Shown here one piece after another: positions 447 to 53,012 of a DNA stretch of 64,000 nt (its first letter is position 1; the number at the start of each line of letters is the position of its first letter). Both the position numbers and the translations under genes were made by a program. The stretch covers positions 101,997,784 to 102,061,783 of the forward strand of contig NC_072893.1 of assembly GCF_027943255.1 (NCBI RefSeq). The letters run 5' to 3'. The notes under the pieces were generated by a model. It had not been told where the DNA came from. It ran no database searches and worked only from the letters and a program-made list of their open reading frames with translations. The stretch is from Anastrepha obliqua (lineage: Eukaryota; Arthropoda; Insecta; Diptera; Tephritidae).

Positions 447-1495
447 TTATGAATGAAAAATAATATCGTTCAAATGACTGCCACGACTATCTTTACAGTA
501 GGCCATTCGATCAACCCAATTTTTAAGCACATTTTCGATTGTTTGTGCTCCAATTTCATGAATGGCAACTTCGATTTCGTGTTTTAAAGCATCAATCGTC
601 TCTGGATGGTTCGCATAGCATTTGGAGCTTAAATCATAGCTCCGAGGCGGCCAATTGATATCAGATTTTGGCTGATTATTAGGTTTTCAAAAACGGTAGC
701 CAAAAGTTCGAGTGTAACTTTGGCAGTGTGACAAGTTGCACCGTCCTGTTGAATCCAAATATCTTCCAAGTCATCCTCTTCAATTTTTGGAAACAACTGG
801 TTGAGCATGTCACGGTAACGCTCGCCATTTACTGTAACCGCGGCTTCTCGCTCATTTTCGAAAAAAATGGCACGATGATGCCGCCAGAGCAAAACCGCAC
901 CAAACAGTGACCCGTTGTGGATGCATTTGCTTCTCTACAGTAAGGTGTGGATTTTCTGAGCCCCAAATCCGACAATTTTGCTTATTGACGTGACCACCGA
1001 TGTGAAAATGAGCTTCATCAGAAAAGATGATATTTCCGTAAAAATGCTCATCTTCGGTCAAACGATTTTCTGCCCATTGAACGAACCAAAAATGCATTGG
1101 ATGGTCATTAGGCTTCAGTTTGTGCACCAATTGAACTTTGTGAGCCTTCATACCGAGGTCTTTATGCAAAATTCTCCTCAAAGAAGTGCGTGAAATGTTC
1201 AATTCTTGAGAACGATGACGAGTTGAGGTTGTTAGATGTTCACGCATATTTTCGGCTATAGCAGCAATGTTTTCGGGTGTACGCACTGTAGGAGCACGTT
1301 CACGTGTTTTTTTATCCTTTAACGATCCACTTTCACGAACACGATTAACAAATTGATCTACAAACTGTCTTGTTGGCATATCTTTTTCTTTGGATTTTTT
1401 TTTTTCAAATTTGTCACAGTTTGAGTAGAAGACTCACCACTTTGGAAATAGGTTTTCAATATTTCCCAATTTTGTTCAAGCGTATAGCGACCCAT
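447..1495 (-). pseudogene. DD41D transposase pseudogene
   Basis: The product would be a DDE/D transposase that cuts and pastes the element. The start is the ATG at 1493-1495, which gives the N-terminus MGRYTLEQNWEI typical of the family, and the stop is at 447-449. In order, the coding strand shows an N-terminal helix-turn-helix region, HRSQELNISRTSLRRIL, the first catalytic aspartate in FSDEAHF, VNKQNCRIW, VTVWCG, and the second aspartate in QQDGATCHTA. The third aspartate should follow NWPPRS about 41 residues later, but the sequence passes from DLSS straight to KCYANHPET, so that segment is deleted. There are also frameshifts near 1375-1400 and 850-890. The expected length is about 349 codons, so most of the gene is present. 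It cannot be functional. Confidence 0.85.
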
Positions 1496-2733: not shown

Positions 2734-3200
2734 TTAATTGGCGCGATAACCGCTTACGCGATTTTGGCCGAGTTTAACAAAGCGTGACAGTCATTTCTTT
2801 CTCGTGCTAACCGGCGCCAATTGGACACACCAAGTGAGGCCAAGTCCCACCTGATCTTTCCAACGCAGAGGAGGCCTTACTCTTCCTCTACTACGACCAG
2901 CTGGTACCGCATCGAATGCTTTCATGGATGGATCTTTATTCGCTGCGCTATGTCTATGTCGTCATAAAGCTCATACTGCTCATAGTTCCATGGCCTGCGA
3001 TATTCGCCGTTTCCAACGTGCAAAGGTCCAAAAATCTTTCGCAGAATCTTTCTCTCAAACACTCCAAGCGTCGCTTCTTCGGATGTTGTCATCGTCCGCG
3101 CTTCTGCGCCATGTTTAGGACGGGCATGGTGAGAGCCTTGTAGAGTGTTAGTTTTGTTCGTGGAGAGAGGATTTTACTACTCAGATGCCTTAGTCCAAAG
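2734..3200 (-). mobile_element. LINE-C copy 2, 3' end of an RTE-like LINE
   Basis: The minus strand matches the end of the LINE at 18243-20030. It carries the segment encoding LTLYK, the block around a long match to FERKILRKIFGPLHV, and the YELYDDIDIAQRI region, all broken by frameshifts. This copy keeps about 230 bp of 3' sequence that the longer copy has lost. It ends with the tail blocks CTCGGCCAAAA and CGCGCCAATTAAG (2734-2775), with exactly 18 nt between CTCGGCCAA and CGCGCCAATTA. The 5' side is truncated, as is usual for LINEs. Confidence 0.8.
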
Positions 3201-3429
3201 TAGCAAAGTTACTCTGTACTACATATATGTACTACATATATAATATGAAACGAAAAGTTTTTGTTCTGCAAGTCCTTTTCTATCCTCGACATAACCTGTT
3301 TTTTTAATTTTTTTTAACAACGTTTGAATTGTCGACTCATTCGAATGATTATTTCCACCAAAATAATTACGAATTTTGCTATATGTTGTTCTTAAAGATG
3401 TTAAAGATTAATAATAAATATATAATTAG

Positions 3430-3580
3430 CGTGAACACTTCTGTTAGGTATTTGGCCGAGTACACTGCCATTGCCTGCCTAAGGGCGACCGCTATTAGAA
3501 AAAAGTTTTTCTTTATTTTGGCGTTTCATATACGGAGATTCGAACCAACGAACCCCAGCAGGGTTCCCTCTTAATTTTCT
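3430..3580 (-). repeat. SINE-1 copy with internal deletion
   Basis: The 3' tail ('gcgtgaacacttctgttagg', then 'ttggccgag') jumps straight to 'tgccattgcctgcc', removing about 100 bp of the body. A degraded box-B ('gagattcgaacc') follows near 3535-3546. The spacer belongs to the CTAACAG subfamily also found at 43068 and 52702. Confidence 0.75.
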
Positions 3581-10587: not shown

Positions 10588-11840
10588 CTGTGGGCAAAAA
10601 GTAAGCTGAATTTGGTTGTAAAATGAAAAATCTTTATTTATTCTTGTAAATCAATTTCAACCCCTTCAAAATAGTCCCCTCTCGATGAAATACACTTATG
10701 CCAACGATTTTTCCAATCCCCTAAACATGCCAAATAGTCCATTTCCGGTATAGCCATCAGCACCTTCTTTGATTCAGCTTTTATCTCCTCAATCGACTCG
10801 AAACGCGTTCCCCTGAGTGGTCTCTTGAGTTTGGGAATAGCCAGAAGTCACACGGAGCCAAATCAGGCGAATACGGTGGTTGCGGAACGATATGCGTGGA
10901 ATTTTTGGCGAAATGGTCACGAAGAACGAGTGCAGTGTGAGACGGTGCATTATCGTGATGCAAAAACCAAGAGTTGTTGGCCCATAATTCTGGTCTTTTT
11001 AGACGAATTGCTTCACGTAAACGAAGCATAACGCTCAAATAATATTCCTTATTAACAGTTTGGCCAGGTGGAAGGAATTCATTTGAACGACTTTGACGTG
11101 CTCTTTTCGGTCTGGCCTCGCCTTTAGCACGATATTCGCTTGATTCGCTCAGTTGTTTCAGGGTCGTAAGCATAAATCCAAGTCTCATCTCCTGTAATGA
11201 TGCATTTGAGCTTGTCCTGATAGTCTGAAAGCATTGTTTCACACACATCAACGCGACGACTTTTTTCCAAGAAATTGAGTGTTGTCGGTACCAAACGAGA
11301 TTTGACTTTTCGTAGGTCCAAATGGTCTTTTAAAATGGTTTTCACAGATCCTTCTGATATTCCGATCATATCAGTAAGGTCTTTAACCGTCAACCAACGA
11401 TTTTTGAGCACTATCTCCTTCACTTTATTGACGTGTTGGTCATCTGTTGACGTCGATGGTCGTCCGGAGCGCTCCAAGTCATCAACACGTTCTCGACCCT
11501 CTTTGAAGTCTTTGTACCACTTATAAACATTTTTCAGCGACATGATCGAATCACCAAATGCCTTCTGCATGCTAAACGTTTCCGCAGCCGAAATTTCATT
11601 CCGCAAACAAAATTTGATGGCACTTCTCTGCTCAATCAAATCAGACATTGTAAAAATCGAAAAATGCACTCTTGGTCGTTTGGTAAACGCAAGCGTAAAT
11701 ATATTACTGATAATGACATTCCCATGAAAGTTGGCCCAGATGTTATTAACAATGCTGCCAACTCATGAAAAAAATAACTAGAGCGAAATTTTAATCCCGC
11801 GAACTTTGACAAATAAATTCACCTTCCTTTTTGCCCACAG
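10588..11840 (-). mobile_element. Mariner (DD34D) element, 1253 bp, complete ends
   Basis: The terminal inverted repeats are about 28 bp. They read CTGTGGGCAAAAAGTAAGCT at 10588, and CTGTGGGCAAAAAGGAAGGT inward from 11840 on the other strand. The canonical TA duplication flanks them at 10586-10587 and 11841-11842. The single gene inside is a broken transposase. Confidence 0.9.
10638..11648 (-). pseudogene. Mariner DD34D transposase pseudogene
   Basis: The start is taken at MSDLIEQRSAIKF (ATG at 11646-11648) and the stop at 10638-10640 follows DYFEGVEIDLQE. Visible in order are the paired helix-turn-helix region (residues about 1-110, including GRERVDDLERSGRPSTS and LTVKDLTDMIGISEGSV), the first aspartate in ITGDETWIYAYD, the second in HHDNAPSHT, and the third in YSPDLAPCDFWLF. 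The spacing from the second to the third is 34 residues, the mariner signature, so all three catalytic residues survive. It is inactive because of a frameshift near 11150-11200, an in-frame loss of about 17 residues between RQSRS and NEFLPPGQTVN, and a frameshift after WLF near 10835. It closely matches the mariner transposase pattern, not Tc1. Confidence 0.88.
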
Positions 11841-13112: not shown

Positions 13113-14958
13113 ATGCCAGAAGCAATGAAAACTACTACAATAATATGTAGAAATCCAGGCACCATGGAGGAAGCGATGGAAATATTGTTTCAAGCCGGGT
13201 ACGCACATATTGGGAACAATAATGGGAACGACTCAGATTTTAAAACTCATTCAAGTAATAGGAATAATAATTATAGAAACAACACACAATACAATAAAAA
13301 AGATAGTGGGAATAGAGCTCAATACGAGAACCTCCAACAACCATTCCAAATCCACAGAAAGAATTTCCATTCAATGCCCCAAAATAACGGAAGAAATTAC
13401 CAACAACCATTCCAACAACACCACCCATACCAATAACCATTCCAACAACACCACCGCCCATACCAACAAGCAACCCCACAAAACCCCAATGCTCAAAATC
13501 CACCATTCCTAAGACCAAATTTTAGGACCCTACCAGAACCGATCGACATAGCAAAATTAGAAGTGGCTGAAAATTTTCGGGAATCAGCCTCAAGAATAAA
13601 TTACCATTTATACTAATACAAACGAAGATAGGTTTTATAAAAATTATAATAGACACAGGCGCAACAAACTCAATTTTAAATCCGGGGTCTGTGACCCAAA
13701 AAGGATTCATTCAATCAACCCACTTTTAATTAAAACTCTTCAACATCAAATTTACGTTAGCGAAAAATCCATAATACTTATTTTCGAAGAATTTAGCGAC
13801 ATTGGAACAAATAAAACACTAGAATTTTATATAATAAGATTTCATAATTTTTATGATGGTTGTCTAATTGGTAACGATATATAGAACTAAATGCCTGTAT
13901 CGATTATAGAAAGAAAGAAATAGTCATCGGTAACAAGAAACTCACTAAATAAGAAAAAGATAATAGCACCAGATAACTCCGACCTAGTATATTATATGGA
14001 AGAAAACGTCGGAAATATTTTAAGAGAGTCTCAGTCATATAGATATCCGTACGTGCATAAAAAGAAGTTGCATATCAAATCCAAGAGATGTTGGAAAATA
14101 AGATAATTAGGAATAGCAATTCTCCCTTCAGCCCCAATTTGGATAGTGCCGAAGAAGGCCGATGGCAGTGGAAAACCGTCTATCGTAAACTGAACGAAGT
14201 AACGATCGATGACAAGTTCCCCATCCCGAACATAGACGAGATACTTCAAAAACTGTGAAGAAGCCAGTATTTCACCACACTCGATTTGGCAAAGGGTTTT
14301 CACCAAAGTTTTAGTGTCGAAGGAGGACACTATGAATTTCTGCGAATGCCTTTCGGACTAAAGACAGCCCCTGCAACATTCCAGAGATTGATGAACAATA
14401 TCCTTCAAGATTACATCAATAAAATCTGCTTGATATACCTGGACGATAAAATCATATTTTCAACATCCTTACAAGAACATATGAGCTCACTCAAACAAGA
14501 TTACAGGAAAGTAAGTCCATTTGGATAAACCAGAATTTCTAAAAAAAGAAACGAAGTTCCTTGGGCACATAATTACAACGGAAGGCCCAATCCCAAAAAG
14601 ATAGAATGCGTTGTTAACTTTCCAATACCCAAAACGACAAAACAGATCAAGCAATTCTTAGGGCTCATAGGCTACTACAGAAAGTTCATAAAAGACTACT
14701 CATCTATCGCTAAACCAATGATTAAATACTTAAAGAAGGATTCAAAGATTAACATAAATGACCCAGAGTACGAAAAAAGTTTTAACACCCTTAAGATTCT
14801 ACTAACGCATGATCCAATATTAGCATATCGAAACTTTTCTAAAACATTTACATTGACAACGGACGCGAGTAATTACGCTTTGGGAGCCGTACTTTCCCAA
14901 GACAATCACCCAATACGCTATGCAAGTCGAACCCTTAATCCCCATGAAATAAATTACC
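13113..14958 (+). pseudogene. Gypsy-type (Ty3/errantivirus-like) retrotransposon fragment: gag end, protease, reverse transcriptase, RNase H
   Basis: The order on the plus strand fits a Ty3/gypsy pol. A gag C-terminal stretch rich in Asn/Gln/His comes first (13113-13436, GTMEEAMEILFQAGYAHIG). A protease active-site motif IDTGATNSIL (near 13645-13680) follows, then reverse transcriptase with [12 protein letters not shown] (14272-14310), [17 protein letters not shown] and the catalytic-loop region [10 protein letters not shown] (near 14430-14462). The thumb ([17 protein letters not shown]) and gypsy-type RNase H start ([28 protein letters not shown]) end it. The expected catalytic YVDD-type motif reads YLDD. 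Many frameshifts and stops occur and parts are missing. The 3' side, including integrase and LTRs, is absent: sequence switches to a SINE at about 14962. It is a dead, truncated copy. Confidence 0.85.
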
Positions 14959-14961
14959 CTT

Positions 14962-15238
14962 ATGACTACCATTCGGAATTCACAGAATTAAGAAAATTAA
15001 GAAAAACAATTTTCTAATAGCGGTCGCCCCTCGGCAGGCAATGGCAAACCTCCGAGTGTATTCCTGTATGAAAAAGCTGCTCATAAAAATATCTGCCGTT
15101 CGGCGTCGACTTGAAACTGTAGGTCCCTCCATTTGTGGAACAACATCAAGACGCACGCCACAAATAGGAGGAGGAGTTCGGCGAAACACCCAAAAAGGGT
15201 GTACGCGCCAATTATATATATATATACATATATTTCTA
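14962..15238 (+). repeat. SINE-1 copy fused to gypsy RNase H
   Basis: The SINE begins inside its tRNA head ('gactaccattcggaattcac'). It lacks box B, continues through the body, and ends with the hairpin ACACCC-aaaaa-GGGTGT and 'gcgccaattatatata'. The junction with gypsy is at about 14958-14962, so the open frame running from RNase H into 'PYDYHSEF' is chimeric and not a real protein end. Confidence 0.85.
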
Positions 15239-16528: not shown

Positions 16529-16850
16529 ATAATTGGCGTGTACACACTTTTTGGGTGTTTGGGCGAGCTCCTCCTCCTATTTGTGGTGTGCGTCTTGATG
16601 TTGATCCACAAATGGAGGGACCTATGTATACAGATTCAAGTCCACTCCGAACGGCAGATATTTTTATGAGGAGTTTTTTCATGGCAGAAATACACTCGGA
16701 GGTTTGCCATTGCCTGCCGTGAGGCGACCGCTATTAGAAAATTGTTTTTCTTCATTCTGGTGTTTCACCGAGATTCCAACCTACGTTCTCTTTGAACTCC
16801 AAATGATAGTCACGCACCAACCCATTTGGCTACGCCAACCGCCGTAAATA
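16529..16850 (-). repeat. SINE-1 copy, nearly full length
   Basis: It runs from the tail 'tataattggcgtgtacac' with the GGGTGT hairpin to the head 'accaacccatttggctacgcc' (box A on the minus strand near 16830-16845). Box B lies near 16770-16782 ('gagattccaacc', one substitution from the GGTTCGAATC pattern). Confidence 0.85.
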
Positions 16851-18162: not shown

Positions 18163-18242
18163 TTATACATAATTTAACAATATTTTTATATTATATATAA
18201 TATATTGTATATATTTAATTAACTGATTATATATAATTAAAC

Positions 18243-20030
18243 TGCAAACCCGAAAAAACAATTGGTACGACGAGGAAAGAAAGAATGCCGCCTATAGAAC
18301 TACGCTGCGATCGGGCGCAACGCGAGGCATGTGGGATCGCTACAGAGAGCTGAAAAAGGAAGAGAGACGTATTATCCGACAGAAGAAACGAGGAGCCGAA
18401 ATACGTGAGTGCGAAGAGCTTGATATGCTGGCCAACAGGAACAACGCCCGAAAATTCTATCAGCGGCTTACCGAAGGTTTTAAGACCGGGGCGTTTTCCT
18501 GTAAGAACAAAGACGGCGAACTGGTGACTGGCATCCAGAGCAATCTTAAATTATGGAGGGAACACTTCTCGAACCTGTTAAACAGTGACAGCTGCGCATG
18601 TCACAGAGAATGTGAAGATCCCGATACCCCAATCGACGACGACGGAATTGACGTTCCGCTACCCGACCATGACGAGGTGAGAATAGCGATAACGCGGCTA
18701 AGGAACAACAAAGCCGGGGGCGCCGACGGACTGTTGGCTGAGCTATTCAAACATGGCGGCGAGAAGCTGGTAAGGTGCATGCATCAGCTCCTATGCAGAA
18801 TATGGTCGGATGAAAGCATGCCTGCCGATTGGAATTTAAGTGTGCTCTGCCCAATTCATAAGAAGGGCGATCGTGCAATTTGTGCCAATTACCGCGGGAT
18901 TAGTCTACTAAATATCGCCTATAAGGTTCTAGCGAGCGTATTGTGAGAAAGGCTGAAGAGCACCGCCAACCAACTGATTGGACCTTATCAGTATGGCTTT
19001 AGACCTGGAAAGTCTACCATCGACCAAATATTCACAATACGCCAAATCTTGGAAAAGACCCATGAAAGGAGAATCGACATACACCATCTTTTCGTCGATT
19101 TCAAAGCTGCATTCGACAGTACGGAAAGGAGTTACTTGTATGCCGCGATGTCTGAATTTGGTATCCCAGCAAAACTAATACGGCTATGCAAGATGACGTT
19201 GCTCAACACCAGCATCGCCGTCAGAATTGGGAAGGACCTCTCCGAGCCGTTTGATATCAAACGAGGTTTCAGACAGGGTGACTCGCTGTCGTGTGACTTC
19301 TTTAACCTGATGTTGGAGAGCATCGTACGAGCAACAGAACGTAATCGCTCAGGCACAATATTTTATAAGAGCGTACAATTGTTGGCGTATGCCGATGATA
19401 TTGACATCATCGGCCTTAACAACCGCGTTGTTAGTTCTACCTTCTCCAAACTGGATAAAGAGGCAAAGCGAATGGGTTTGGTGGTGAACGAGGACAAAAC
19501 GAAGTACCTCCTGTCTTCAAACAAACAGTCGGCGCACTCGCGTATCGGCACCCACGTCACTGTAGACAGTTATAATTTTGAGGTTGTAAAAGACTTCGTT
19601 TATTTAGGAACCAGCATTAACACCGATAACAATGTCTGCCTTGAAATTCAACGTAGAATCTCTCTTGCCAACAAGTGCTACTTTGGACTAAGTAGGCAAT
19701 TGAGTAGTAAAGTCCTCTCTCGACGAATAAAACTAACACTCTACAAGACTCTCATTATGCCCGTCCTAACGTATGGCGCAGAAGCTTGGACGATTACAAC
19801 ATACGATGAAGCGACGCTTGGAGTGTTCGAGAGAAAGATTCTGCGTAAGATTTTTGGACCTTTGCACGTTGCCAACGGCGAATATCGTAGACGATGGAAC
19901 GATGAGCAGTATGAGCTTTACGACGACATAGACATAGCGCAGCGAATATAGATCCAGCGGTCTTTGTAAAACTCGGCCAAAATCTCGTAAGCGGTTATCG
20001 CGCCAATTAAGAAGAAGAAAGAAGAAACTA
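18243..20030 (+). pseudogene. LINE-C copy 1, RTE-like LINE reverse transcriptase, one internal stop
   Basis: One reading frame runs from about 18243 to 19951 with a single in-frame TGA (18944-18946). Before the fingers it reads NNWYDEERKNAAYR. The reverse transcriptase blocks follow: NNKAGGADGLLAELFK, CPIHKKGDRAICANYRGISLL, QYGFRPGKSTIDQIF, the first catalytic aspartate in VDFKAAFDS, RGFRQGDSLSCDFFNLMLE, and the catalytic pair in LLAYADDIDIIG. Thumb sequence runs to YDDIDIAQRI, then a TAG where copy 2 has AAA. The endonuclease domain is absent because the copy is 5'-truncated in AT-rich DNA. About 230 bp of the 3' region is deleted relative to copy 2, but the terminal tail is retained and followed by AAG repeats. 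The clade (RTE-like) is inferred from motifs. Confidence 0.85.
19971..20010 (+). promoter_or_regulatory. LINE-C 3' recognition tail shared with SINE-1
   Basis: The tail is CTCGGCCAA, 18 nt, CGCGCCAATTA, then AAG repeats. The 18-nt spacer contains CTCGTAAGCGGTTAT, able to pair partly with itself as TCGCG/CGCGA-type arms. SINE-1 copies carry the same two blocks with the same 18-nt spacing. In many LINEs the 3' end is what the reverse transcriptase recognises to begin copying, so this is the likely recognition site. The role is inferred. Confidence 0.6.
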
Positions 20031-22316: not shown

Positions 22317-22626
22317 ATATAATTGGCGCGTACACCCTTTTTGGGTGTTTGGCCGAGCTCCTCCTGCTATTTGTGGTGTGCGTCTTGATGTTGTTCCACA
22401 AATGGAGGGACCTACAGTTTCAAGCCGAATCCGAACGGCAGATATTTTTATGAGGAGCTTTTTCATGGCAGAAATACACTCAGAGGTTTGCCATTGCCTG
22501 CCGAGGGGCGACCGCTATTAGAAAATTGTTTTTCTTAATTTTGGTCTTTCACCGAGATTCGAACCCACGTTCTCTCTGTGAATTCCGAATGGTAGTCACG
22601 CACCAACCGAATCAGCTACAGCGGTT
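22317..22626 (-). repeat. SINE-1 reference copy, full length
   Basis: On the minus strand it starts with a tRNA-like head, with box A 'tagctgattcggttggtg' and box B 'gggttcgaatctc'. It passes through a 190-bp body (including 'tctaatagcggtcgcccctc', 'ccatgaaaaagctcctcat' and 'ggtccctccatttgtgg'). It ends with CTCGGCCAA, the ACACCC/GGGTGT hairpin and CGCGCCAATTATA, followed by AT repeats. The two boxes are the internal RNA polymerase III promoter typical of tRNA-derived SINEs. Confidence 0.9.
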
Positions 22627-23423: not shown

Positions 23424-24734
23424 CAGGGTGGCTGATGAATTTTGCTACATTAAGAAACTCAAATAACTTTTTTTTTAGTGTATGGAATTTATTTATTTTT
23501 TTTCAAGTTGAAGGTCATTAAATTTTATTAAATGTAGCTTAACTAGTTTTAAAAATAATTGAATTTAAATGCCCCCCATGCTCGTTGACACAAGTGCGGC
23601 ATCTTAGTAAAAAGTTGTTCATTGCTGCTTTGAGAGTTGCGACAGGAATAGCCGCAATTGTTGCCCGAATGGATTGTTTTAGTTCATCCAAATTTGTTGG
23701 CTTTGTTTTATAAACTTCTTGTTTACATAAACCCCACAAGAAAAAGTCAGGTGCAGTAAGGTCAGGCGACCTGGGGGGCCAACGAAATTCGGAGTTTCTT
23801 GAAATCAGTTTATTGGGAAATTTTCGTCGCAACTCTGTCATAACAGTCTGGGCTATTTGAGACGTTGCCCCATCTTGTTGAAACCACACAGAGTTGAAAG
23901 GAATTCTCTTTCGGCGTAGTTCTGGATAGAAAAATTCTTTCAGCATTTTCAAATAACGGTCTCCAGTAACCGTAACGGTGTGAGCATTTTCTTCAAAAAA
24001 ATAAGGCCCGACAATACAGCGTGAAGAACCGCACACCACACTGTCACGCGAAGAGGATGCAATTCCGTCTCGTGGAGTATCTGTGGGTTAGAAGTACTCC
24101 ATATTCGACAATTTTGTTTGTTCACATTGCCGTTTAAATCGAAATGGGCCTCATCAGACATGAAAAGGCAGTTTAACATGTTTTGGTCTTCTTCCACCAT
24201 TTGCAGGATCTTCTGGCAAAATTCCAAGCGAATCGGCAAGTCTGCTGCATTCAGTTTGTTAACCATTTGAATTTTGTAGGGAAATAAGTCTAAATCTTTG
24301 TGCATTATTGTTTGCAAAGACTGTCGGCTGACACCAAGTTGAGCAGATAAGCTTCTTGTTGAAACCCTTGGATTGCTTTGTATAGCTGCAGCTACAGCAG
24401 CGATCGTTTCCTCCGTCCGAACTGGTGGGTTTCGATGATAAGGCCTTCTTGCGACTGTTCCTTGCTCAGAAAAATTATTCACCAGTCTCATTATGGTCCA
24501 TCTGCTCGGGGGATCGCCGCAAAACATCCGCCTGTACTTTCTCTGTACCAAAACTACGGACTCCAGTGCGTGATAGCGGTGGACTATCCAAATTCTTGTT
24601 TGCGTGTCCCAGTTATCCATTTTAATAAATTTTAAAGATCAATCTGCAAATTAAAACAAAAATGGAACAGATAACTTAAAAAGAAAAAAAGTTATTCAAT
24701 TTTTTTTTGGTAGCAGCTTTCATCAGCCACCCTG
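23424..24734 (-). mobile_element. DD41D transposon, 1311 bp, complete ends
   Basis: The inverted ends CAGGGTGGCTGATGAA are followed by similar sequence (TGCTAC), and TA flanks both sides (23422-23423 and 24735-24736). The element carries a single transposase gene on the minus strand with one frame break. It inserted into the small inverted-repeat element at 23311-24893. Confidence 0.92.
23539..24620 (-). pseudogene. DD41D transposase with one frame break
   Basis: This is the least damaged DD41D gene here. The start MDNWDTQTRIWIVHRYHAL at 24620 leads into the helix-turn-helix domain (RWTIMRLVNNFSEQGTV and VSTRSLSAQLGVSRQSLQTIMHKDL). Then come the first catalytic aspartate in LFMSDEAHFDLNGNVNKQNCRIW, WCAV, a frame change near 23950-24040, TVTGDRYLKMLKEFF, and the second aspartate in VWFQQDGATSQIA. 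The third aspartate is in PDLTAPDFFLWG, with exactly 41 residues between the last two. The C-terminus is GGHLNSIIFKTS. All three catalytic residues remain. Repairing one small indel would restore the frame, so the copy is relatively young but not active as read. Confidence 0.9.
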
Positions 24735-26576: not shown

Positions 26577-27270
26577 AAGGTGGCGCAAAAGTAACCTTGC
26601 GATGTTTCTTGGCTGTTATTAAAAAAAAATGAAAAACTGCAGAAGAGATCGTGAGTCCGTCGAGGACGATGTAGAAAGAACGTAGGCAGTAAACATCGAA
26701 AACTGATAATAACATCAATAAAGTGAAAGAAAAATTGATCAATAGCGGCAAATTAACCATCAGAGAGCTGGAAGAGGGCTTGAACATTGCTTATAGATCT
26801 GTACTAGACATTGTAGTTAATGATTTGGGAAAAATGGACCGCATTAATATCGTTGAATCCGACCCAACAGTCATCAAACGCACCATTACTGAAGACGAGA
26901 CATGGGTAACGCGAGTTTATGAACGAAGACCAAAAAAACCATGTCGTTGTCAGCCAAAAAACAAAGCGATGCTCACGGTTTTTATGGATTACAGCGGTAT
27001 TGTACACCCCGAATTTTTGCCAAAAGGTCAGACAGTTAATAAAGACTATTATTTGAGCATTATGAGACGTATACGTGAAGAAATCTGTCAACAAATAAAG
27101 GATTTGTGGGAAAAAACTCATGGATTTTGTACCATGACAAAGCACCGTCGCACATCATTTGTGAGTTTTCGACCAAGAACGAAACGAATACCATCCAATA
27201 GCCATCGAATTCACCTAATATGGTTCCCGAATCAAAAAAACCTCAACGATGCAGCAATCTCAGTATCGAA
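26577..27270 (+). pseudogene. Mariner-like (DD34D type) transposase remnant
   Basis: The left end GGTGGCGCAAAAGTAACC looks like a mariner terminal repeat. The open frame then shows the second helix-turn-helix (LTIRELEEGLNIAYRSVLDIV), the first aspartate in TITEDETWVTRVYE, MLTVFMDYSGIVHPEFLP, GQTVNKDYYLSIMRRIREEI, and a frameshifted HDKAPSH-like motif near 27130-27160. The third aspartate region is degraded, and a SINE-1 fragment cuts the sequence off at about 27270. The spacer and first domain are deleted relative to a full-length mariner. Confidence 0.75.
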
Positions 27271-27274
27271 CCCT

Positions 27275-27362
27275 TTACAGGGTGTTTGGCCAAGCTCCTC
27301 CTCCGGTTTATGGTTTGCGCCTTGAGCTTCCTCCGCAAATCGAGGGACCTACAGCTTTGCGG
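27275..27362 (-). repeat. SINE-1-related 3' fragment, diverged
   Basis: The block 'gggtgtttggccaagctcctcctcc' onward to 'gagggacctacag' follows SINE-1 order but differs at many sites ('tgcgccttgagcttcctccg'). It stops exactly where the next tRNA-like head starts. Confidence 0.65.
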
Positions 27363-28965: not shown

Positions 28966-30290
28966 TTATTCTGCCAAGCAGGGGGTGCACACATCTCTCA
29001 TGTGTTCTTTGCATGCATATTTACTACATTTTTGGCAAATTTTTCTGCTGGATTTATTACGACTCCTTGAGCAAATATAGCAACGCCAAATACAGTTTAC
29101 CTCGGATTTTGGAGGTGGTAAGGGGTCTTCTAAACCAAGTAAGTGCCAGGCTCGACGCCCCACTACTTTTGACAAGTTTTGGAATGGTTGCTCGTTCTCC
29201 AATTTGAAGTGTTATTAGCTTCCAAGCACTCATTTCAATAAAATCAGATCCTAAAACTTTTTTTCCGGATTTTTAGCTTTATAAACGCAAATAGCATTCA
29301 TTGCAGATATATTTACCAAGTTGTAGGCCATCGATTTATTGTTCTCGCGGCATTGTTTATACTTTTCGCACATCTGATCTACCAAATCCACGCCGATTTT
29401 CGTTTTGTTATAGTAGGTTATTATTTCGGGTAACTTCTTGTCAACACTTCCTTGGTCAATCGAATTATCATGATGCATTAAGGAAATCAGAATAGCGGTT
29501 TTGTTTTTCTTTGCATCGATTAACGCAAACATCTTTAGCCCATATTTAGCCGGCTTACTAGGTATATACTGTTTAAAGGAGCATGGCCCTCTTAAAGCCA
29601 ATAACTGCTCATCTATTGTCAAAAATTCACTTGCAATAAACTTTTTTTTTTTAAATTAGCCACGAATATGTCAAGTACATCTCTGATGGGCGCAAATTTA
29701 TCGGCTTCTCTCCTATCATTTCTTGTTCTAATGTCATCATACCGTTTCCTTTTGAGTTATCCCATATTTTGTGAGCATTTTTTCTAGAACTTCTCAAGGT
29801 TCCAATTAGAAATAGAATTCCCATAGAGGCACTTATTTCTTTTTCGTTAGTTAATCTTGCGAAAGGGACCCTTTCAAATTTGTTTTTGATTTTTTCAATA
29901 TATACTATACATTTGTTGAATCAATTATCTTTTGAATAATATTGTCAGATTGAAAAGGTTGAATACAATCAATTTCCTGGACCAGGAAAAAGTTTTATAA
30001 TATTGTGGGAACGAATGTGTACCTGTAAATTAGCTCTAATTTTCTTCCATTTTGTTGTTTTGTCTCTGCGTAGGCTTCTGGCTCTATAATAGCTTCTTTT
30101 TCAGCCAAAAAGGTTCTTTTTAGAGTCTGTTTGATTATCGCTACTTTTTACGACATTATCCTCTAGTTCGTCTTCATCTGCTTCATCTATTGAACCTTCC
30201 TCTTCGCTAGAAAGCTCATCTAACCATTTCGTCCAAACAAGAGGATCTGTGCTATGTTCCAAACGAATTTTTTTGCATCAGACATTTAAA
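28966..30290 (-). pseudogene. piggyBac-type transposase pseudogene
   Basis: Read on the minus strand from 30290, an acidic N-terminus (DPLVWTKWLDELSSEEEGSIDEADEDELED) is followed by degraded sequence. A clear piggyBac core comes next: MTIDEQLLALRG (first catalytic aspartate), FKQYIPSKPAKYGLKMFALIDAK, and KTKIGVDLVDQMCEKY (third catalytic aspartate). The segment expected to hold the DNxFTS motif is deleted. The C-terminus (28966-29202) is a separate frame with a cysteine-rich zinc-binding domain, CYICSRSRNKSSRKICQKC then CKEHMRDVCTPC. Multiple frame breaks are present. No TTAA-flanked inverted ends were found. It is clearly a different piggyBac lineage from the one at 37161-39577. Confidence 0.82.
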
Positions 30291-32345: not shown

Positions 32346-33638
32346 TAAAGGGTGATTTTTTAAGAGCTATAGGAAAGCTTTTCAAAAAAACACACGTAAA
32401 ATTCAGAAAAATGCATGCAATTTTTATTTAAATCGATAGTACAGTCCATATAATTTAATGTTTCAAGATTATTTCATGCAAATGTTGACCGCGACTGCGC
32501 TTCAAATGGTCCATCCGCTTAGTCCAATTTTGGCATACTCTTTCCAATGTTTCTTTGCTTTAATGTTGTCTTCCAATGCGTTAATTGAAGCAGGCTTGTC
32601 TCAATCGACATGAGCTTTAACATAGCCCCACAAAGAATAATCTAAAGGCATTATATCGCACGATCTGGGTGGCCAATTGACAGGTCCCGAACGTGAAATA
32701 CAATGTTCACCGAACTCGTCTCTCAACAAGTCCATTGTTACGCGTGCTGTGTGGCATGTGGCACAGTCTTGCTGAAACCACAAGTCATGCAAGTCAAGCT
32801 CTTGCATTTTGGGTAAAAATAGTTGGATATCATTTCACGGTAGCGCTCACAATTCACAGTTACGTTACGATTCGCAGCATCTTTGAAGAAGTACGGTCCA
32901 ATGATACCTCCAGCTCATAAACCGCACCAAACTGTGACCTTTTCTAGATTCATTGGTAGCTATTGCAATTCTTCTGACTGATCTTCACTCCAAAGTCGAC
33001 AATTCTGCTTATTTACGTACCCATTGATCCAAAAATGAGCTTCGTCGCTGAACGCAATTTTTCGATAAAAAAGTGGATCTTCGGCCAACTTTCCAAGAGC
33101 CCATTCACCAAAAATTCTGCATTGCGGTAGGTCGTTCGACTTCAATTCTTGCAGCAGCTGTATTCGTATTTTGAAAGGCTTCACACCTAAATCCTTTCGC
33201 AAAATTCTCCACGTTGTTGAGTAACAGAGGCCCAATTGCTGCGAACGGCGACGAATCGATAATTGATGGTCATCATTAACACTGGCCGATACAGCTGCGA
33301 TATTTTCTTCAGCTCGCACTCTACGTAAGCGTATTGGTGGTTTGATGTTCAATAATGTAAATTTGGTTCTAAATTTAGTCACACGAGCTCGAATAGCCGG
33401 TTCAGTGTATCGATTAAACTGACCAAAAAATGGAAGAAGCGCGCGATAAACTTTCTTATCAGAACACGCATTTTTATAATAAAATTCAATGATTTGAAAG
33501 CGTTGTTCGTTTATAAGATGATTCATGGTTAAATTATAGGCCAAACTGAAGATGTTTGACAGTGAAACAAAACACGAAACGTGCGTTAGCTGTTTAAACC
33601 AACTGTTTAAAAATATAATACCTAAAAAATCACCCATA
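32346..33638 (-). mobile_element. DD41D transposon with GGGTGATTTTTTA ends
   Basis: The left end reads AAGGGTGATTTTTTAAGAG. The right end, on the minus strand, reads TGGGTGATTTTTTAGGTAT. TA occurs next to each. The length, about 1.29 kb, matches a complete element of this group. The transposase inside is broken. Confidence 0.85.
32470..33526 (-). pseudogene. DD41D transposase pseudogene
   Basis: The start is the ATG at 33524-33526 (MNHLINEQRFQIIEFYYKN), the family-typical N-terminus; the upstream in-frame ATG at 33637 lies in the terminal repeat. The helix-turn-helix region (LSIRRRSQQLGLCYSTTWRIL), the first aspartate in IAFSDEAHFWINGYVNKQNCRLW, the second in LWFQQDCATCHTA and the third in CDIMPLDYSLWGYVK are all visible. 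The last two are 41 residues apart. The usual DGATCH reads DCATCH. Frame breaks lie between about 32800 and 32960 and after VKAHVD near 32605. Confidence 0.85.
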
Positions 33639-33722
33639 ATTGGGGCCTACTCAGCGAAAGGAAACTGAAGTTAGAGGTCTAGAATGCCTAATTTCATGGT
33701 GGGTGTCATGTCCTCTATACTA

Positions 33723-37160: not shown

Positions 37161-39577
37161 CCCTTCTTTGCATGATGATGGAAATTTCATTCACAATATT
37201 TAGTCAACAAAAAAAGGTACTCAAAACCCTTGTACTGTAAATTTGTTGTTGATGGCAACTTTTTAAGCGACTATTGCGTACAACAAAACGCAATTGTCAA
37301 AAAATAGCAAGCGTCACTGTGAATTACCAGGCCTAGAACTTGTCATTTCGCTGTTTGTTGTGAATGGAAGAAAGGAGCGAGATTTTAAATTGTTTTATGG
37401 AAATAAACAGAGATATAAAATACAATAAAAGTGAAAATGAGTGGAAAAGAGGTTTGTTTTCATGTACAATTTATATCAAAACACTGTGATTAAATTTCTC
37501 AAAATTATGTGATGGAAATTTACATCACTATGCAGTAACTTCACTTGTAATGTATGGCAAACATTTTTTTGTAAACGTTTACTTTATGTTGTTTTTTAAG
37601 GCAACTTGAATGAAAGAGATATTGAAGATTATCTTAGTAAGTTAGAAGGCGGTTGGCTCTCAGAAGATGGCCTTGATTATAAGAGTGTTGCAGGAGGCGA
37701 ACGATGATGATGATGATGTGGATGAAGCTGCTGACATTGATCCTCCTCTTGTAGAACCAGAATATCAAGAACCCTCTCACCCATCAACTTCATCCAATTT
37801 GCAGTCTTCATCCAGTTTTCCATTTGACAAAAGAAGCTCGATTTGGAAAAAAGGAATCTGGTGTATAACACAGATAAAATTACTTTCTTGGGGAGTTCTA
37901 CTGCTTCAGGTGGTCTACCACACTTAGAAACTCCTTGTCATTGTTTTAACCATTTTATCACTGAAGATTTTATCAAAATATTAGTAGAGGAGACAAATTA
38001 ATATATAATACAGAGTAATACCAGTTCATCTATAACATTTACAGAATATGATTTGTTTAAGTTCTTTGGTATATTATTATACATAATCAAAGTAATCAAA
38101 TTTCCTAGCACAAGATCATACTGGTCGCCAAAGTTTGGATATGAACCCATTTCTTCAACAATGCCACTGAACAAGTTTGAGAAAATAAAGTTATCATCAC
38201 ATTTTAATAACAATGATCTTCACAAGCCTATAGGTCATCCAGAACATGACAAGCTTTATGAAATCCACCCTGTTATCAAGCATCTCAATGAGAGGTTTGC
38301 CACAGTGCCAATGAATCAAAGACTTTCTGTGGATGAGCAGATATGTTCTACCAAAATAGGACATTTTTTAAAACAGTATTTGCCTAAGAAGCCCCATAAA
38401 TGGGGCTTCAAATTATATGTTCTCTGTGATTTGATGGAATATGCCCACAAGTTTGAGGTATATTCTGGACAAGAGAATACAGAGAAACTCCCAGATGAAC
38501 CAGAGCTTGGTGCAACAGGAAATGTTGTAGTTCGTTTGCTTCGAGGAGTGCCAAGAAAGCAAAACCACATCATATACATGATAATTTGTATACCTCTTTG
38601 CCATTGGTAGTTTTTTTAGCTAAATCAGGAATTCAGTGGAAACTGTGCAACAAAATAGGCTACCAAATAATAAACTTCCAGAGAAGAAAAATTTCATGAA
38701 AAAATCTGTGCCCAGAGGTAGTTTTAAGGAAAGAGTATCTGTGCATGATGGTATAGATTTGAATTGCGTCGCTTGGAAAGATAATAAGATAGTAACCCTG
38801 TTATCTCTTATTCTGGAGCATTGCCTGTAACTAAAGTCAATAGATTTGACAGGATAACAAAAGGAAAAATTGATATTACTTGCCCGTTTACTGTCCAAGA
38901 GTACAATAAGTATATGGGAGGAGTATATCTCATGGATAGCTTTTTGGGCAGAAATCATATAAAATTGAGGTCTAAAAAGTGGTATTTGCATATTTTTTTC
39001 ATCAATTTTATCTAGCTATTATAAACTCTTGGATTGTGTATACAAAATATGCTCAAGAAAGAGGTGAACCTAAAAAGAGACTGCTTACATTGGGCCAATT
39101 CAGAAAAGAATTGGCCTTTGTGCTATGCAACAGAGGAACCACCAAAGAAGCTAAAAGAGGGCGTCCTGGTACCAGTGTACTAGAAGAAGAATTACAATCA
39201 AAAAAAGGAAAAGGTTCTCCAGCTCCACCACCTCCAAAAGGCATAAGAAATGATGGTGCTGAACATTGGCCAAAAGTAGGTGGGTCACTCCGGTGCAAAT
39301 TTCCCAAATATAAAGGCTATTCCACAATTTCGTGTAATAAATTTGGCGTCAATTTGTGCTTAAATAAGAATAAAAATGGTTTTTGAAATTATCATAAAGG
39401 ATAAAGAAGATTGAGTAAACTATATTTTTTATTTATTTAGTACTGAGCTAAATATGTGACAATGCATGATGATGTAAATTTCCATCATATTGTTTTTTAC
39501 ATAATACATATTTTTATTTACACTAGGAGTTTTTTTAAATATTTAAAAAAAAATAGAAAAAATCATGCAAAGAAGGG
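37161..39577 (+). mobile_element. piggyBac transposon, 2417 bp, complete ends
   Basis: The inverted ends CCCTTCTTTGCATGAT are identical and flanked by TTAA (37157-37160 and 39578-39581), the piggyBac hallmark. Subterminal motifs based on TGATGGAAATTTACATCA recur near 37176, 37510 and 39467-39487 and could be transposase-binding sites. The gene inside has several frame breaks. Confidence 0.93.
37437..39386 (+). pseudogene. piggyBac transposase pseudogene (PGBD-like)
   Basis: A short first exon (MSGKE, 37437-37451) seems to be followed by an intron to about 37600. The acidic N-terminus comes next (NLNERDIEDYLSKLEGGWLSEDGLDY and a frame break in a GAT repeat near 37705, then DDDDDVDEAADIDPP). 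The catalytic domain shows [24 protein letters not shown] (first aspartate, near 38330), a frameshifted HDNLYTSLP (second, near 38578), and YMGGVYLMDSFLGRNHIKL (third, near 38925). The C-terminal zinc-binding region reads RCKFPKYKGYSTISC then GVNLCLNKNKNGF with a stop at 39386. At least four frame breaks make it inactive, though all catalytic residues remain. Confidence 0.88.
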
Positions 39578-42116: not shown

Positions 42117-42117
42117 C

Positions 42118-42404
42118 GGCCGCCGTAGCCGAATGCGTTGGTACGTGAATTCACAGAGAGAACGTAGGTTCGAATCTCGGTGAAACAGCAAAATTAGCGG
42201 TCGTCCCGGCAGGCAATGGCAAACCTCCGAGTGTATTTCTGCCATGAAAAAGCTCCTCATAAAACATATCTGCCGTTCGGAGTAGGCTTGAAACTGTAGG
42301 TCCCTCCATTTGTGGAACAACATCAAGACACATGTCACAAATAGGAGGAGGAGCTCGGCCAAACACCCAAAAAGGGTGTACGCGCCAATTATATATACAT
42401 ATAT
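42118..42404 (+). repeat. SINE-1 copy, full length
   Basis: The head GCCGCCGTAGCCGAATGCG (box A) and GGTTCGAATCTCGG (box B) are clear. Part of the head between them is shorter than in other copies. The tail is CTCGGCCAA, ACACCCaaaaaGGGTGTA, CGCGCCAATTA, then AT repeats, directly abutted by the foldback MITE at 42405. Confidence 0.9.
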
Positions 42405-43067: not shown

Positions 43068-43273
43068 ATTTTTCTAATAGCGGTCGCCCCTCGGCAGGCA
43101 ATGGCAACCTCCGAGTGTATTTCTGCCATGAAAAAGCTCCTCTTAAATTATCTGCCATTCGGAGTCGGCTTGAAACTGTAGGTCCCTCCATTTGTGGAAC
43201 AACATCAAGACGCACACCACAAATAGGAGGAGGAGCTCGGTCAAACACCTAACAGAAGTGTGCGCGCCAATTA
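43068..43273 (+). repeat. SINE-1 copy, headless, tail split by a transposon
   Basis: The body starts at 'tctaatagcggtcgcccctc'. The tail has the variant spacer ACACCTAACAGAAGTGTG, then CGCGCCAATTA. The complete transposon at 43274-47055 interrupts the tail; the rest (TTATTTATTTAA) continues at 47056. Confidence 0.9.
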
Positions 43274-51442: not shown

Positions 51443-52701
51443 GTTTAGATAAGTGTCTTTCCAGTGATTTATTGAAACTCATTTGCTCACTCAGCTTCTG
51501 CAGTATCTGTGCTAGTGAATCTTCAGAGCAGCCAATATCATTAGTTTTAAGTGAAAATGTTATTAATACTTATAAAACGCAATAGTCTTATGTACTGTCA
51601 ATAGCTTTAATAAATAACACCAATACTACTATACCAATAGTTATACTATTTTTATTATCTGATATGGATTTTAATATAAGAGAGATAGTCAATATGCATC
51701 AACTCCGCACTCAGTTCACCAAAAACCGGGCATACCATATACAATTCTGTCCGAAATTATTCACCTCTTCATTTACTTATTTTTTTCAGTATCTCAATTT
51801 TGGTCGCTCAAAGACCATAGAAAGTTAGTCGAGTGCCAATAAAGCAACTCAAGTGGCATAAAATGCATCAAAATGACAAAATTGCGTGTAATAACCGCAA
51901 TGGTGGCACAACACTTAGGCGGCATACACATTTAACACTCCAGGGAAGATAAAGTTTCATTGCTTTATAATTAACGGACAATTATGCAACTAAAAATTAC
52001 ATTCAAAGCTACGAGTAGTTAACATTGCCACTCTATCTCATGCTGTATTTTCATGCAACAAAAGCTTTTTCATATTATAATCAGCATGGGAAATGCCACG
52101 AAACAATTAGTAGAACTCAAACCGCTAACAAAGCCCTAAATGTATGAATGCAAAATAGCTGCCGGGGAACGTTGTGAACAACAATGCTGAATTTGCGCCA
52201 ACCCAGCCAGAGAAATAACTGCAAACATTGTTACTACATAATATCATAAATCGGTATGATTCTGATGTTTATTTCTGGTACTAGAACAAAATAAGATCTA
52301 TAATTTCACTAGATGGCTACCACAACCCGCATAGTGGAAAACTTTTAAGAAATTCATTAAATGCCGCCAATATCTTAACGATAATAACGTCCTAAGGTAG
52401 AACACCATTTTATAGGTCTTTACAATATTGAGGAAAATGGTATGGCTCACGAACTTTAGCAATTTGATGAATTTTTTTTTAAGTTGGCAAATTCCAAACG
52501 AAAGGAATGGGGTTCATTTGACTAACTACTGTCTGCTCCTAGAGAGGTGGGCGTCAACTCAGCGATCGCTGGGCAATAACACAAACTTGTACGGTCGTGA
52601 AATCTTTCAGGCCACGAGTGAATCGGAGGCGCTTGAGATATGTCCTGAGATTAACAAAATTTCAGCTCTCGAATTTCGTAGGTAAATAAAACAAAATAAA
52701 T
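51443..52701. other. 1.26-kb spacer
   Basis: The open frame at 52428-52685 (85 codons) has no recognised motif. No repeats were assigned. Confidence 0.4.
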
Positions 52702-53012
52702 AATTGGCGCGTACACTTCTGTTAGGTGGTTGGCCGAGCTCCTCCTCCTATTTGTAGTGTGCGTCTTGATGTTGTTCCACAAATGGAGGGACCTACAGTT
52801 TCAAGCCGACTCCGAACGGCAGATATTTTTATGAGGAGCTTTTTCATGGCAGAAATACACTCGGAGGTTTGCCATTGCCTGCCGAGGGGCGACCGCTATT
52901 AGAAAAATGTTTTTTTTTTTATTAATTTTGCTTTCACCGAGATTCGAACCAACGACCTCTCTGTGAATTCCGAATGGTAATCACGCACCAACCCATTCGG
53001 CTACGGCAGCCG
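52702..53012 (-). repeat. SINE-1 copy, full length, CTAACAG subfamily
   Basis: The tail is ATTGGCGCG-tacacttctgttaggtgg-TTGGCCGAG in plus orientation. The body and a head with box B 'gagattcgaacc' and box A 'cccattcggctacgg' follow. The spacer is again exactly 18 nt, but its sequence differs from the GGGTGT subfamily. Confidence 0.9.

What the first reader, a model, noticed from the sequence alone, without database searches (positions are those of the whole stretch)
19971..20015. SINE-1 and LINE-C share a two-block 3' tail with an invariant 18-nt spacer
LINE-C copies (2734-2775, minus; 19971-20010, plus) and SINE-1 copies (42354-42391, 43240-43273, 52702 and others) all end CTCGGCCAA - 18 nt - CGCGCCAATTA (single substitutions in some). 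The 18-nt spacers differ in sequence between LINE (AATCTCGTAAGCGGTTAT) and SINE (ACACCCAAAAAGGGTGTA, ACACCTAACAGAAGTGTG) but keep their length. The SINE spacer forms a hairpin. Shared 3' ends are how SINEs are recognised by a partner LINE's reverse transcriptase, so LINE-C probably mobilises SINE-1. The conserved frame with a variable hairpin suggests recognition of flanking sequence plus structure.
Basis: partly seen in the sequence, partly recalled or inferred. Interest (0 to 1): 0.88.

Follow-up and report, generated by a model that had tools for sequence, protein, structure and literature searches.

The report
Shared SINE/LINE tail spanning stop codon
In a fruit-fly-like insect genome, a small parasitic repeat carries the same 38-base end as a young full-length jumping element whose enzyme probably copies it, and in the jumping element that end is a foldable RNA stretch with the gene's stop codon in its loop.

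Summary
Nine 38-nt tails (CTCGGCCAA, 18 nt, CGCGCCAATTA) lie in the window against 0.01 expected. The window's two LINE copies are relics, but the genome holds many full-length relatives with one open frame (endonuclease plus reverse transcriptase). In the 30 best-scoring copies fetched, RT regions are 97-100% identical, the tail is present in 30 of 30 and its spacer is identical in 30 of 30. Two points were missed. First, block 1 is coding: the ORF ends ...SAKIA-stop inside the spacer, leaving 19 nt before (AAG)n. Second, the LINE spacer is also a predicted hairpin, AAUCGC-GUAA-GCGGUU, with the stop codon in its loop; the main SINE type has ACACCC-AAAAA-GGGUGU. Three of six pairs differ on both sides yet pair, and the flanking blocks are predicted to pair with each other. 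Covariation is not seen by RNAalifold without a hand-set register shift. LINE-C insertion sites fit the published RTE "Tn-TA" signature; SINE sites resemble it weakly. Best reading: an RTE-type stringent SINE/LINE pair. Sharing is shown; mobilisation and structural recognition are inferred. An older RTE partner carrying the SINE hairpin was not found but is not excluded.

The parts
19972..20009 (+). LINE-C 3' tail: block 1 (19972-19980), 18-nt spacer (19981-19998), block 2 (19999-20009)
   Evidence: exact block match; spacer is a point-mutated form of the AATCGCGTAAGCGGTTAT found in 30 of 30 full-length copies read
18227..19951 (+). LINE-C body, 5'-truncated: EN/RT linker and reverse transcriptase; in-frame stops at 18944-18946 and 19949-19951; the last part of the ORF before the tail is deleted
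   Evidence: ORF list; RVT_1 E 1.5e-23; 91% aa identity to a full-length copy
20010..20027 (+). (AAG)n-like simple repeat that ends the LINE
   Evidence: sequence; AAG-type repeat follows the tail in the full-length copies
2735..2772 (-). LINE-C 3' tail of a second, decayed copy, with the unmutated spacer AATCGCGTAAGCGGTTAT
2773..3265 (-). decayed LINE-C body upstream of that tail
   Evidence: blastn and tblastn
42117..42391 (+). SINE-1 copy: head with box A/B-like motifs, body, LINE-type tail 42354-42391 (hairpin 42363-42379), then TA-rich repeat
22320..22585 (-). SINE-1 copy, tail 22320-22357 (type A hairpin)
15018..15214 (+). 5'-truncated SINE-1 copy, tail 15177-15214 (type A hairpin)
16530..16834 (-). 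SINE-1 copy, tail 16530-16567 (type A hairpin, one pair broken)
43078..43273 (+). 5'-truncated SINE-1 copy, tail 43236-43273 (type B spacer ACACCTAACAGAAGTGTG)
52701..53012 (-). SINE-1 copy, tail 52701-52738 (type B spacer), 8-bp candidate target-site duplication
3423..3460 (-). tail of an internally deleted SINE-1 relic

Best explanation
The 38-nt unit is the 3' recognition tail of a young RTE-type LINE (LINE-C), which SINE-1 also carries. Shown: the full-length LINE ends in it; the tail is the only significant similarity found between SINE and LINE; block 1 encodes the last residues of the LINE protein; the stop codon sits in the apical loop of a predicted 6-bp hairpin; the main SINE type has a different 6-bp hairpin in the same place; and the flanking 20 nt are the same. 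Inferred: the LINE-C protein recognises a two-part RNA fold, an outer GGC/GCC helix made by the two blocks plus an apical stem, and starts target-primed reverse transcription in the simple repeat after AATTA. Inferred: SINE-1 RNA is copied in trans because it presents the same fold, so the block frame and the presence of a stem matter more than the sequence of the apical stem and loop.
For: Tail in 30 of 30 full-length LINE copies read, spacer identical in 30 of 30 (these are the 30 best of 90 scored copies). Endonuclease and RT in one open frame in 2 of 2 copies scanned. ORF ends ...SAKIA-stop; fly homologues P0001, P0009 and P0010 end SAIIA, SAKIA and SAITG. The only significant SINE-LINE similarity is the tail (E 0.005; next best E 0.19). 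Predicted fold: outer helix plus apical hairpin in the LINE (-10.7 kcal/mol) and in SINE type A (-14.2, z -3.66). Three of 6 inner pairs differ on both sides between LINE and SINE type A yet pair; a fourth is U-A in SINE type B. A 6-bp stem in this register occurs in 0.9% of 400,000 shuffles of the LINE spacer and 2 of 400,000 of the SINE type A spacer; with the coding part kept and a random 3' UTR, 0.37%. Candidate target-site duplications of 8-14 bp in 15 of 20 LINE copies tested; A/T at each of positions -14 to -11 in 15 of 15, T|A at the junction in 10 of 15, like the Tn-TA signature of RTE LINEs and their SINEs in PMC13295347 (abstract and found passages seen). SINE sites have A/T at -12 and -11 in 10 of 10.
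Against: RNAalifold on the gap-free alignment of 17 tails finds only 3 outer pairs and no covariation; the inner stem appears (4 bp) only after I shifted the register by one base by hand. The LINE hairpin alone is not exceptional: z -1.31 for the 38-mer, a 6-bp helix anywhere in 3.8% of spacer shuffles, and in 3.0% of window 18-mers. Only 4 of 14 SINE tails keep all six pairs; type B has a C.A mismatch. Five of 12 LINE variants fetched with a probe share ACTCGCG..., which breaks inner pair 2. Six of 20 SINE copies lack block 2; two of those share an ACCCAATAATG end, possibly a subfamily that moved without the full tail. The LINE ends in (AAG)n, the SINE in (TA)n, (A)n or (TAA)n. T precedes the cut in only 2 of 10 SINE sites. 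The RT clade was not tested on a tree. No biochemical test.
Confidence: 0.72

Rival explanations
1. SINE-1 was mobilised by a different, perhaps extinct, relative of LINE-C whose tail carried the ACACCC-AAAAA-GGGUGU hairpin and a (TA)n end. LINE-C is a sister, and the two hairpins diverged together with their own RTs.
For: SINE type A and LINE spacers differ at 10 of 18 positions (by inspection) and in loop length, and their 3' simple repeats differ. SINE copies look older: the 20 body-found copies have 77-99%, median about 92%, identity to the body query, against a median of 98.3% between the LINE copies read, which were however picked as the best matches. In zebrafish L2 LINEs the loop is read specifically (PMC4176376; introduction and one results section read).
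Against: A joined probe of LINE end plus SINE hairpin gave 40 scored matches. All 7 that span both parts (85-90% identity) were fetched and have LINE-type spacers; the rest match one part only. In the held sequence the SINE-type tails have SINE-type sequence just upstream.
Confidence: 0.2
2. The shared 38 nt is a fossil of how SINE-1 arose (a template switch onto LINE-C RNA), and the hairpins are incidental. Recognition needs only the blocks or the AATTA plus repeat.
For: Hairpin statistics of the LINE are modest; type B SINEs have a broken pair; some LINE variants break a pair; two SINE copies share an end without block 2.
Against: Most of the spacer sequence differs, while its length and a 6-bp stem are found in both LINE and SINE type A; I infer that drift would have broken one or the other.
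Confidence: 0.25
3. The block similarity is chance or a microsatellite artefact.
For: Both ends are followed by simple repeats.
Against: 0.01 expected against 9 found; present in 30 of 30 full-length LINE copies read.
Confidence: 0.01

Closest known systems
HaSE1/HaSE3 and HaRTE1.1 of Helicoverpa armigera (PMC3272025; found passages seen)
   Same: Insect SINE sharing its 3' tail with an RTE LINE that has a short 3' UTR ending in trinucleotide repeats
   Different: The word 'stem' does not occur in that paper; here the shared part is 38 nt with a hairpin that differs in sequence between partners
Maize/sorghum L1-type LINE and SINE tails (PMC3747384; abstract and found passages seen)
   Same: Variable stem with compensatory changes beside conserved flanking bases
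   Different: L1 clade; loop bases (UCU) conserved there, loop not conserved here
ZfL2-1/ZfL2-2 and eel UnaL2 tails (PMC4176376; abstract, introduction and one results section read)
   Same: 3' stem-loop recognised by the LINE protein; stem sequence can be swapped
   Different: There the loop is decisive; here the loops of LINE (GUAA) and SINE (AAAAA) differ
Bov-B LINE and Sauria SINE; RTE Tn-TA insertion signature (PMC13295347; abstract and found passages seen)
   Same: RTE LINE with T stretch about 10 nt upstream and TA at the cut; SINE shows a related pattern
   Different: Vertebrate hosts; the words 'stem' and 'hairpin' do not occur in that paper
Lepidopteran RTE elements with a 14-bp 3' UTR and repeats (PMC2887409; abstract and found passages seen)
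   Same: Single ORF with endonuclease and RT, stop codon followed by a very short UTR of repeats
   Different: The words 'hairpin' and 'secondary structure' do not occur there; no SINE partner in the passages seen

Membership tests
Stringent-type SINE/LINE pair | SINE 3' end shared with the 3' end of a full-length LINE of the same genome | tested here: met
Stringent-type SINE/LINE pair | Stem-loop in the shared tail, supported by compensatory change | tested here: inconclusive
   predicted in both; 3 of 6 inner pairs changed on both sides, but the register is shifted by one base and RNAalifold finds no covariation without hand-set gaps
Stringent-type SINE/LINE pair | LINE protein needs the tail to copy RNA | not testable with these tools
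   needs a binding or retrotransposition assay
Stringent-type SINE/LINE pair | SINE and LINE share insertion-site signature | tested here: inconclusive
   A/T at -12 and -11 in 15 of 15 LINE and 10 of 10 SINE sites, but T before the cut in 12 of 15 LINE against 2 of 10 SINE sites; SINE TSD starts are ambiguous next to (TA)n and (A)n
RTE-clade LINE | One ORF of about 1,000 aa with APE-type endonuclease and RT | tested here: met
   Exo_endo_phos and RVT_1 in 2 of 2 copies scanned; open frames up to 1,021 aa
RTE-clade LINE | Very short 3' UTR ending in simple repeats | tested here: met
   19 nt after the stop, then AAG-type repeat
RTE-clade LINE | RT phylogeny | not tested
   only best-hit names: a Zeugodacus protein labelled as transposon-derived F52C9.6, which I recall as C. 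elegans RTE-1
RTE-clade LINE | Tn-TA insertion signature | tested here: met
   T at -12 and at -11 in 12 of 15 each, T|A at the cut in 10 of 15, compared with PMC13295347; small sample
tRNA-derived SINE | Pol III box A and box B in a tRNA-like head | tested here: inconclusive
   TAGCCGAATGGG and GGTTCGAATC present in L027 (box consensus recalled); no Rfam match up to E 1 in that copy, no ARAGORN tRNA in the window
Loop-specific tail recognition as in ZfL2 | Loop sequence shared by the RNAs that one LINE copies | tested here: not met
   GUAA in the LINE, AAAAA or AACAG in the SINE; assumes that LINE-C is the partner

The most novel reading that the evidence does not exclude
The RT recognises a modular RNA frame (two conserved blocks that pair, with any short stem on top), and in LINE-C this frame is built across the end of the gene with the stop codon in the loop. 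A ribosome stopping there would sit on the recognition signal, coupling translation to capture of the element's own RNA (cis preference); the SINE imitates the frame but needs no stop codon.
Probability: 0.15. Interest if true: 0.75.

Novelty: new variant of a known kind. Interest (0 to 1): 0.5.

Why it matters
It gives a young, full-length RTE-type LINE together with a SINE carrying the same tail in one genome. The tail is only 38 nt: 20 nt the same and 18 nt replaced by a different hairpin. This natural swap separates what the RT may read (blocks, outer helix, stem) from what it may ignore (stem and loop sequence). The stop codon inside the predicted recognition hairpin makes a link between translation end and RNA capture testable.

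Tried and rejected
Chance and microsatellite artefact: rejected. A SINE body derived from LINE-C: no significant similarity outside the tail. Other relatives: scans of viral contigs found none; a genome-contig scan with a variable gap gave 24 bacterial or MAG records, taken as chance hits from their titles and not examined further. No phage record matched the SINE. A protein search with a reverse-strand SINE translation found nothing. Five sequence words of the SINE and its tail were not found in the held papers; searches for tephritid or Bactrocera SINEs listed nothing relevant by title and abstract. Other searches on the theme. I found no statement of a LINE stop codon inside a tail hairpin in these listings or in the passages seen, but most subscription papers are not held, and I did not read the listed papers whole. 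Three other ORFs in the window that look by eye like non-LTR elements (ends at 5475, 39817, 55553) have no block pair in the 300 nt after the stop: best block-1 mismatches 3, 1, 2 and block-2 mismatches 4, 3, 4 at unrelated spacing. Another RTE-like family (L091, 38% aa identity) ends differently. One 12-nt-spacer LINE tail (L030) is a decayed LINE-C copy. Spacers of 17, 19 and 20 nt and one block duplication occur in single LINE copies among the 12 fetched.

The label '27of30' printed is my error; the spacer is identical in 30 of 30. For the insertion-site comparison, 20 of the 30 LINE copies were given flanks; the SINE set (26 full-length copies tested, 10 with a TSD of 8 bp or more) was found by its tail blocks throughout.

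Rows dropped: in the 20-copy SINE count I left out the 28 copies fetched because of the tail query (L025-L032, L063-L082) and partial bodies that do not reach the 3' end of the body (two rows of L088).

Full report
What is there. The 38-nt unit CTCGGCCAA-N18-CGCGCCAATTA occurs nine times in the window with up to three mismatches (mean of shuffles 0.01). Scanned as independent blocks with any gap from 0 to 60, 8 of 8 strict pairs and 9 of 10 looser pairs have an 18-nt gap; the exception is a coding match inside the LINE. Two copies end LINE fragments and seven end SINE copies or relics.

The LINE. The window's RT ORF (18227-19951, one internal stop) matches RVT_1. The window lies in an unnamed 836-Mb genome; the best named protein hits are from tephritid fruit flies, Zeugodacus cucurbitae and Bactrocera dorsalis. 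A search of the genome with Zeugodacus protein P0001 scored 90 copies, 90 of 90 without stops across the 472 residues, many with an open frame of 1,001 aa (67,174 first-look candidates, so copy number is unknown). In the 30 best copies, which were fetched, RT regions are 97.3-100% identical, median 98.3%. Two of two copies scanned carry an APE-type endonuclease and an RT in one frame.

The LINE tail. In 29 of 30 copies the tail fits a search expression that allowed variants at three positions, and the thirtieth (L058) has one substitution in block 2. The 18-nt spacer is identical in 30 of 30. Read in frame, the last codons are ...TCG GCC AAA ATC GCG TAA, so block 1 is coding (S-A-K), the stop codon lies in the spacer, and only 19 nt of 3' UTR follow before the AAG repeat. 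Fly homologues end in SAIIA, SAKIA and SAITG, which supports the coding reading.

The fold. The unmutated LINE tail folds as an outer helix of block 1 with block 2 (GGC with GCC plus one C-G) and an apical stem AAUCGC/GCGGUU closed by GUAA, whose last three bases are the stop codon. SINE type A folds likewise with ACACCC-AAAAA-GGGUGU. Between LINE and SINE type A, inner pairs 2, 3 and 5 differ on both sides and still pair; pair 6 is U-A in SINE type B. Against this, RNAalifold on the gap-free alignment sees only the outer three pairs and finds an inner stem (4 bp) only when the 3' arm is shifted by one base by hand. The LINE hairpin alone is only mildly unusual: 0.9% of register-fixed shuffles, 0.37% with its coding part kept, 3.8% for a 6-bp helix anywhere in the spacer, z -1.31. 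The SINE type A hairpin is strong: 2 of 400,000 shuffles, z -3.66. Of 14 SINE tails, 4 keep six pairs, 9 keep five and 1 keeps four. Among 12 LINE variants fetched with a probe, five share a change that breaks inner pair 2.

The SINE in the genome. The first tail search found 41 matches (40 of 151 first-look candidates scored); the 28 fetched are SINEs. To avoid choosing by tail, I counted SINE copies found by their body in the window, in ten 10-kb stretches taken at set coordinates and in the flanks of LINE loci: 20 copies. Thirteen have both blocks with spacer 18, one has spacer 20, and six lack block 2 (one of these, L049, is cut before block 1); two of the six share an ACCCAATAATG end. The SINE tail is followed by (TA)n, (A)n or (TAA)n, the LINE tail by an AAG repeat. 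SINE and LINE share no other significant similarity.

Insertion sites. Fifteen of 20 LINE copies tested have candidate target-site duplications of at least 8 bp. Each of positions -14 to -11 is A or T in 15 of 15; T precedes the cut in 12 of 15, A follows in 13 of 15, and both hold in 10 of 15. This resembles the Tn-TA pattern described for RTE LINEs and their SINEs (PMC13295347, passages seen). Of 26 full-length SINEs tested, all found by their tail blocks, 10 have such duplications, with A/T at -12 and -11 in 10 of 10, but T before the cut in only 2 of 10. The start of the duplication is ambiguous next to (TA)n and (A)n, so this is suggestive only.

Is there a better partner? A probe joining the LINE end to the SINE hairpin would score highest on a LINE that carries the SINE tail. 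Of its 40 scored matches (394 candidates), 7 span both parts, at 85-90% identity, and the rest match the LINE part or the SINE tail alone. Twelve were fetched, the 7 among them: all are LINE-C variants with LINE-type spacers, some of length 17, 19 or 20. Another RTE-like family in the held sequence ends differently. An older partner remains possible.

Verdict. SINE-1 and LINE-C form a stringent-type SINE/LINE pair by the sequence criterion, with an RTE-type LINE. What is unusual is that the shared frame is only 20 nt, the hairpin between is replaced including its loop, and in the LINE the frame straddles the stop codon. Recognition by structure and trans mobilisation are inferred.

Noticed in passing
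L033:3459-3504 and L083:8381-8430: Two SINE-1 copies end CTCGG(C/T)CAA...ACCCAATAATG plus TA-rich sequence without block 2; possibly a subfamily with another tail.
   Followed up: partly
window 43236, 52701, 3423; L039, L048: SINE type B spacer ACACCTAACAGAAGTGT, a second hairpin subfamily with one C.A mismatch (U-A in L039).
   Followed up: partly
window 19951-19972: The window LINE-C copy has lost the last part of its ORF between the RT C-terminal region and the tail, yet the tail is nearly intact.
   Followed up: no
L114-L117, L120: Five fetched LINE-C copies share the spacer ACTCGCGTAAGCGGTTAT, perhaps a LINE subfamily with inner pair 2 broken; they were chosen by a probe that favours this change.
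   Followed up: no
window 629-1433, 10781-11762, 23539-24638, 26693-27325, 32960-33646: ORFs that look by eye like broken mariner/Tc1-type transposases; from the ORF list only, no family search run.
   Followed up: no
window 29251-29655, 38002-38610: ORFs that look by eye like piggyBac-type transposase fragments; not searched.
   Followed up: no
window 14529-15214: A 5'-truncated SINE-1 lies directly downstream of or inside an LTR-element pol-like ORF (14529-15017, by eye).
   Followed up: no
L091:1954-2172 (-): Another RTE-like family (38% aa identity) ending CACCAGGGACTGTAACGCTAAGAAGAAG: same AAG-type end but no shared blocks.
   Followed up: partly
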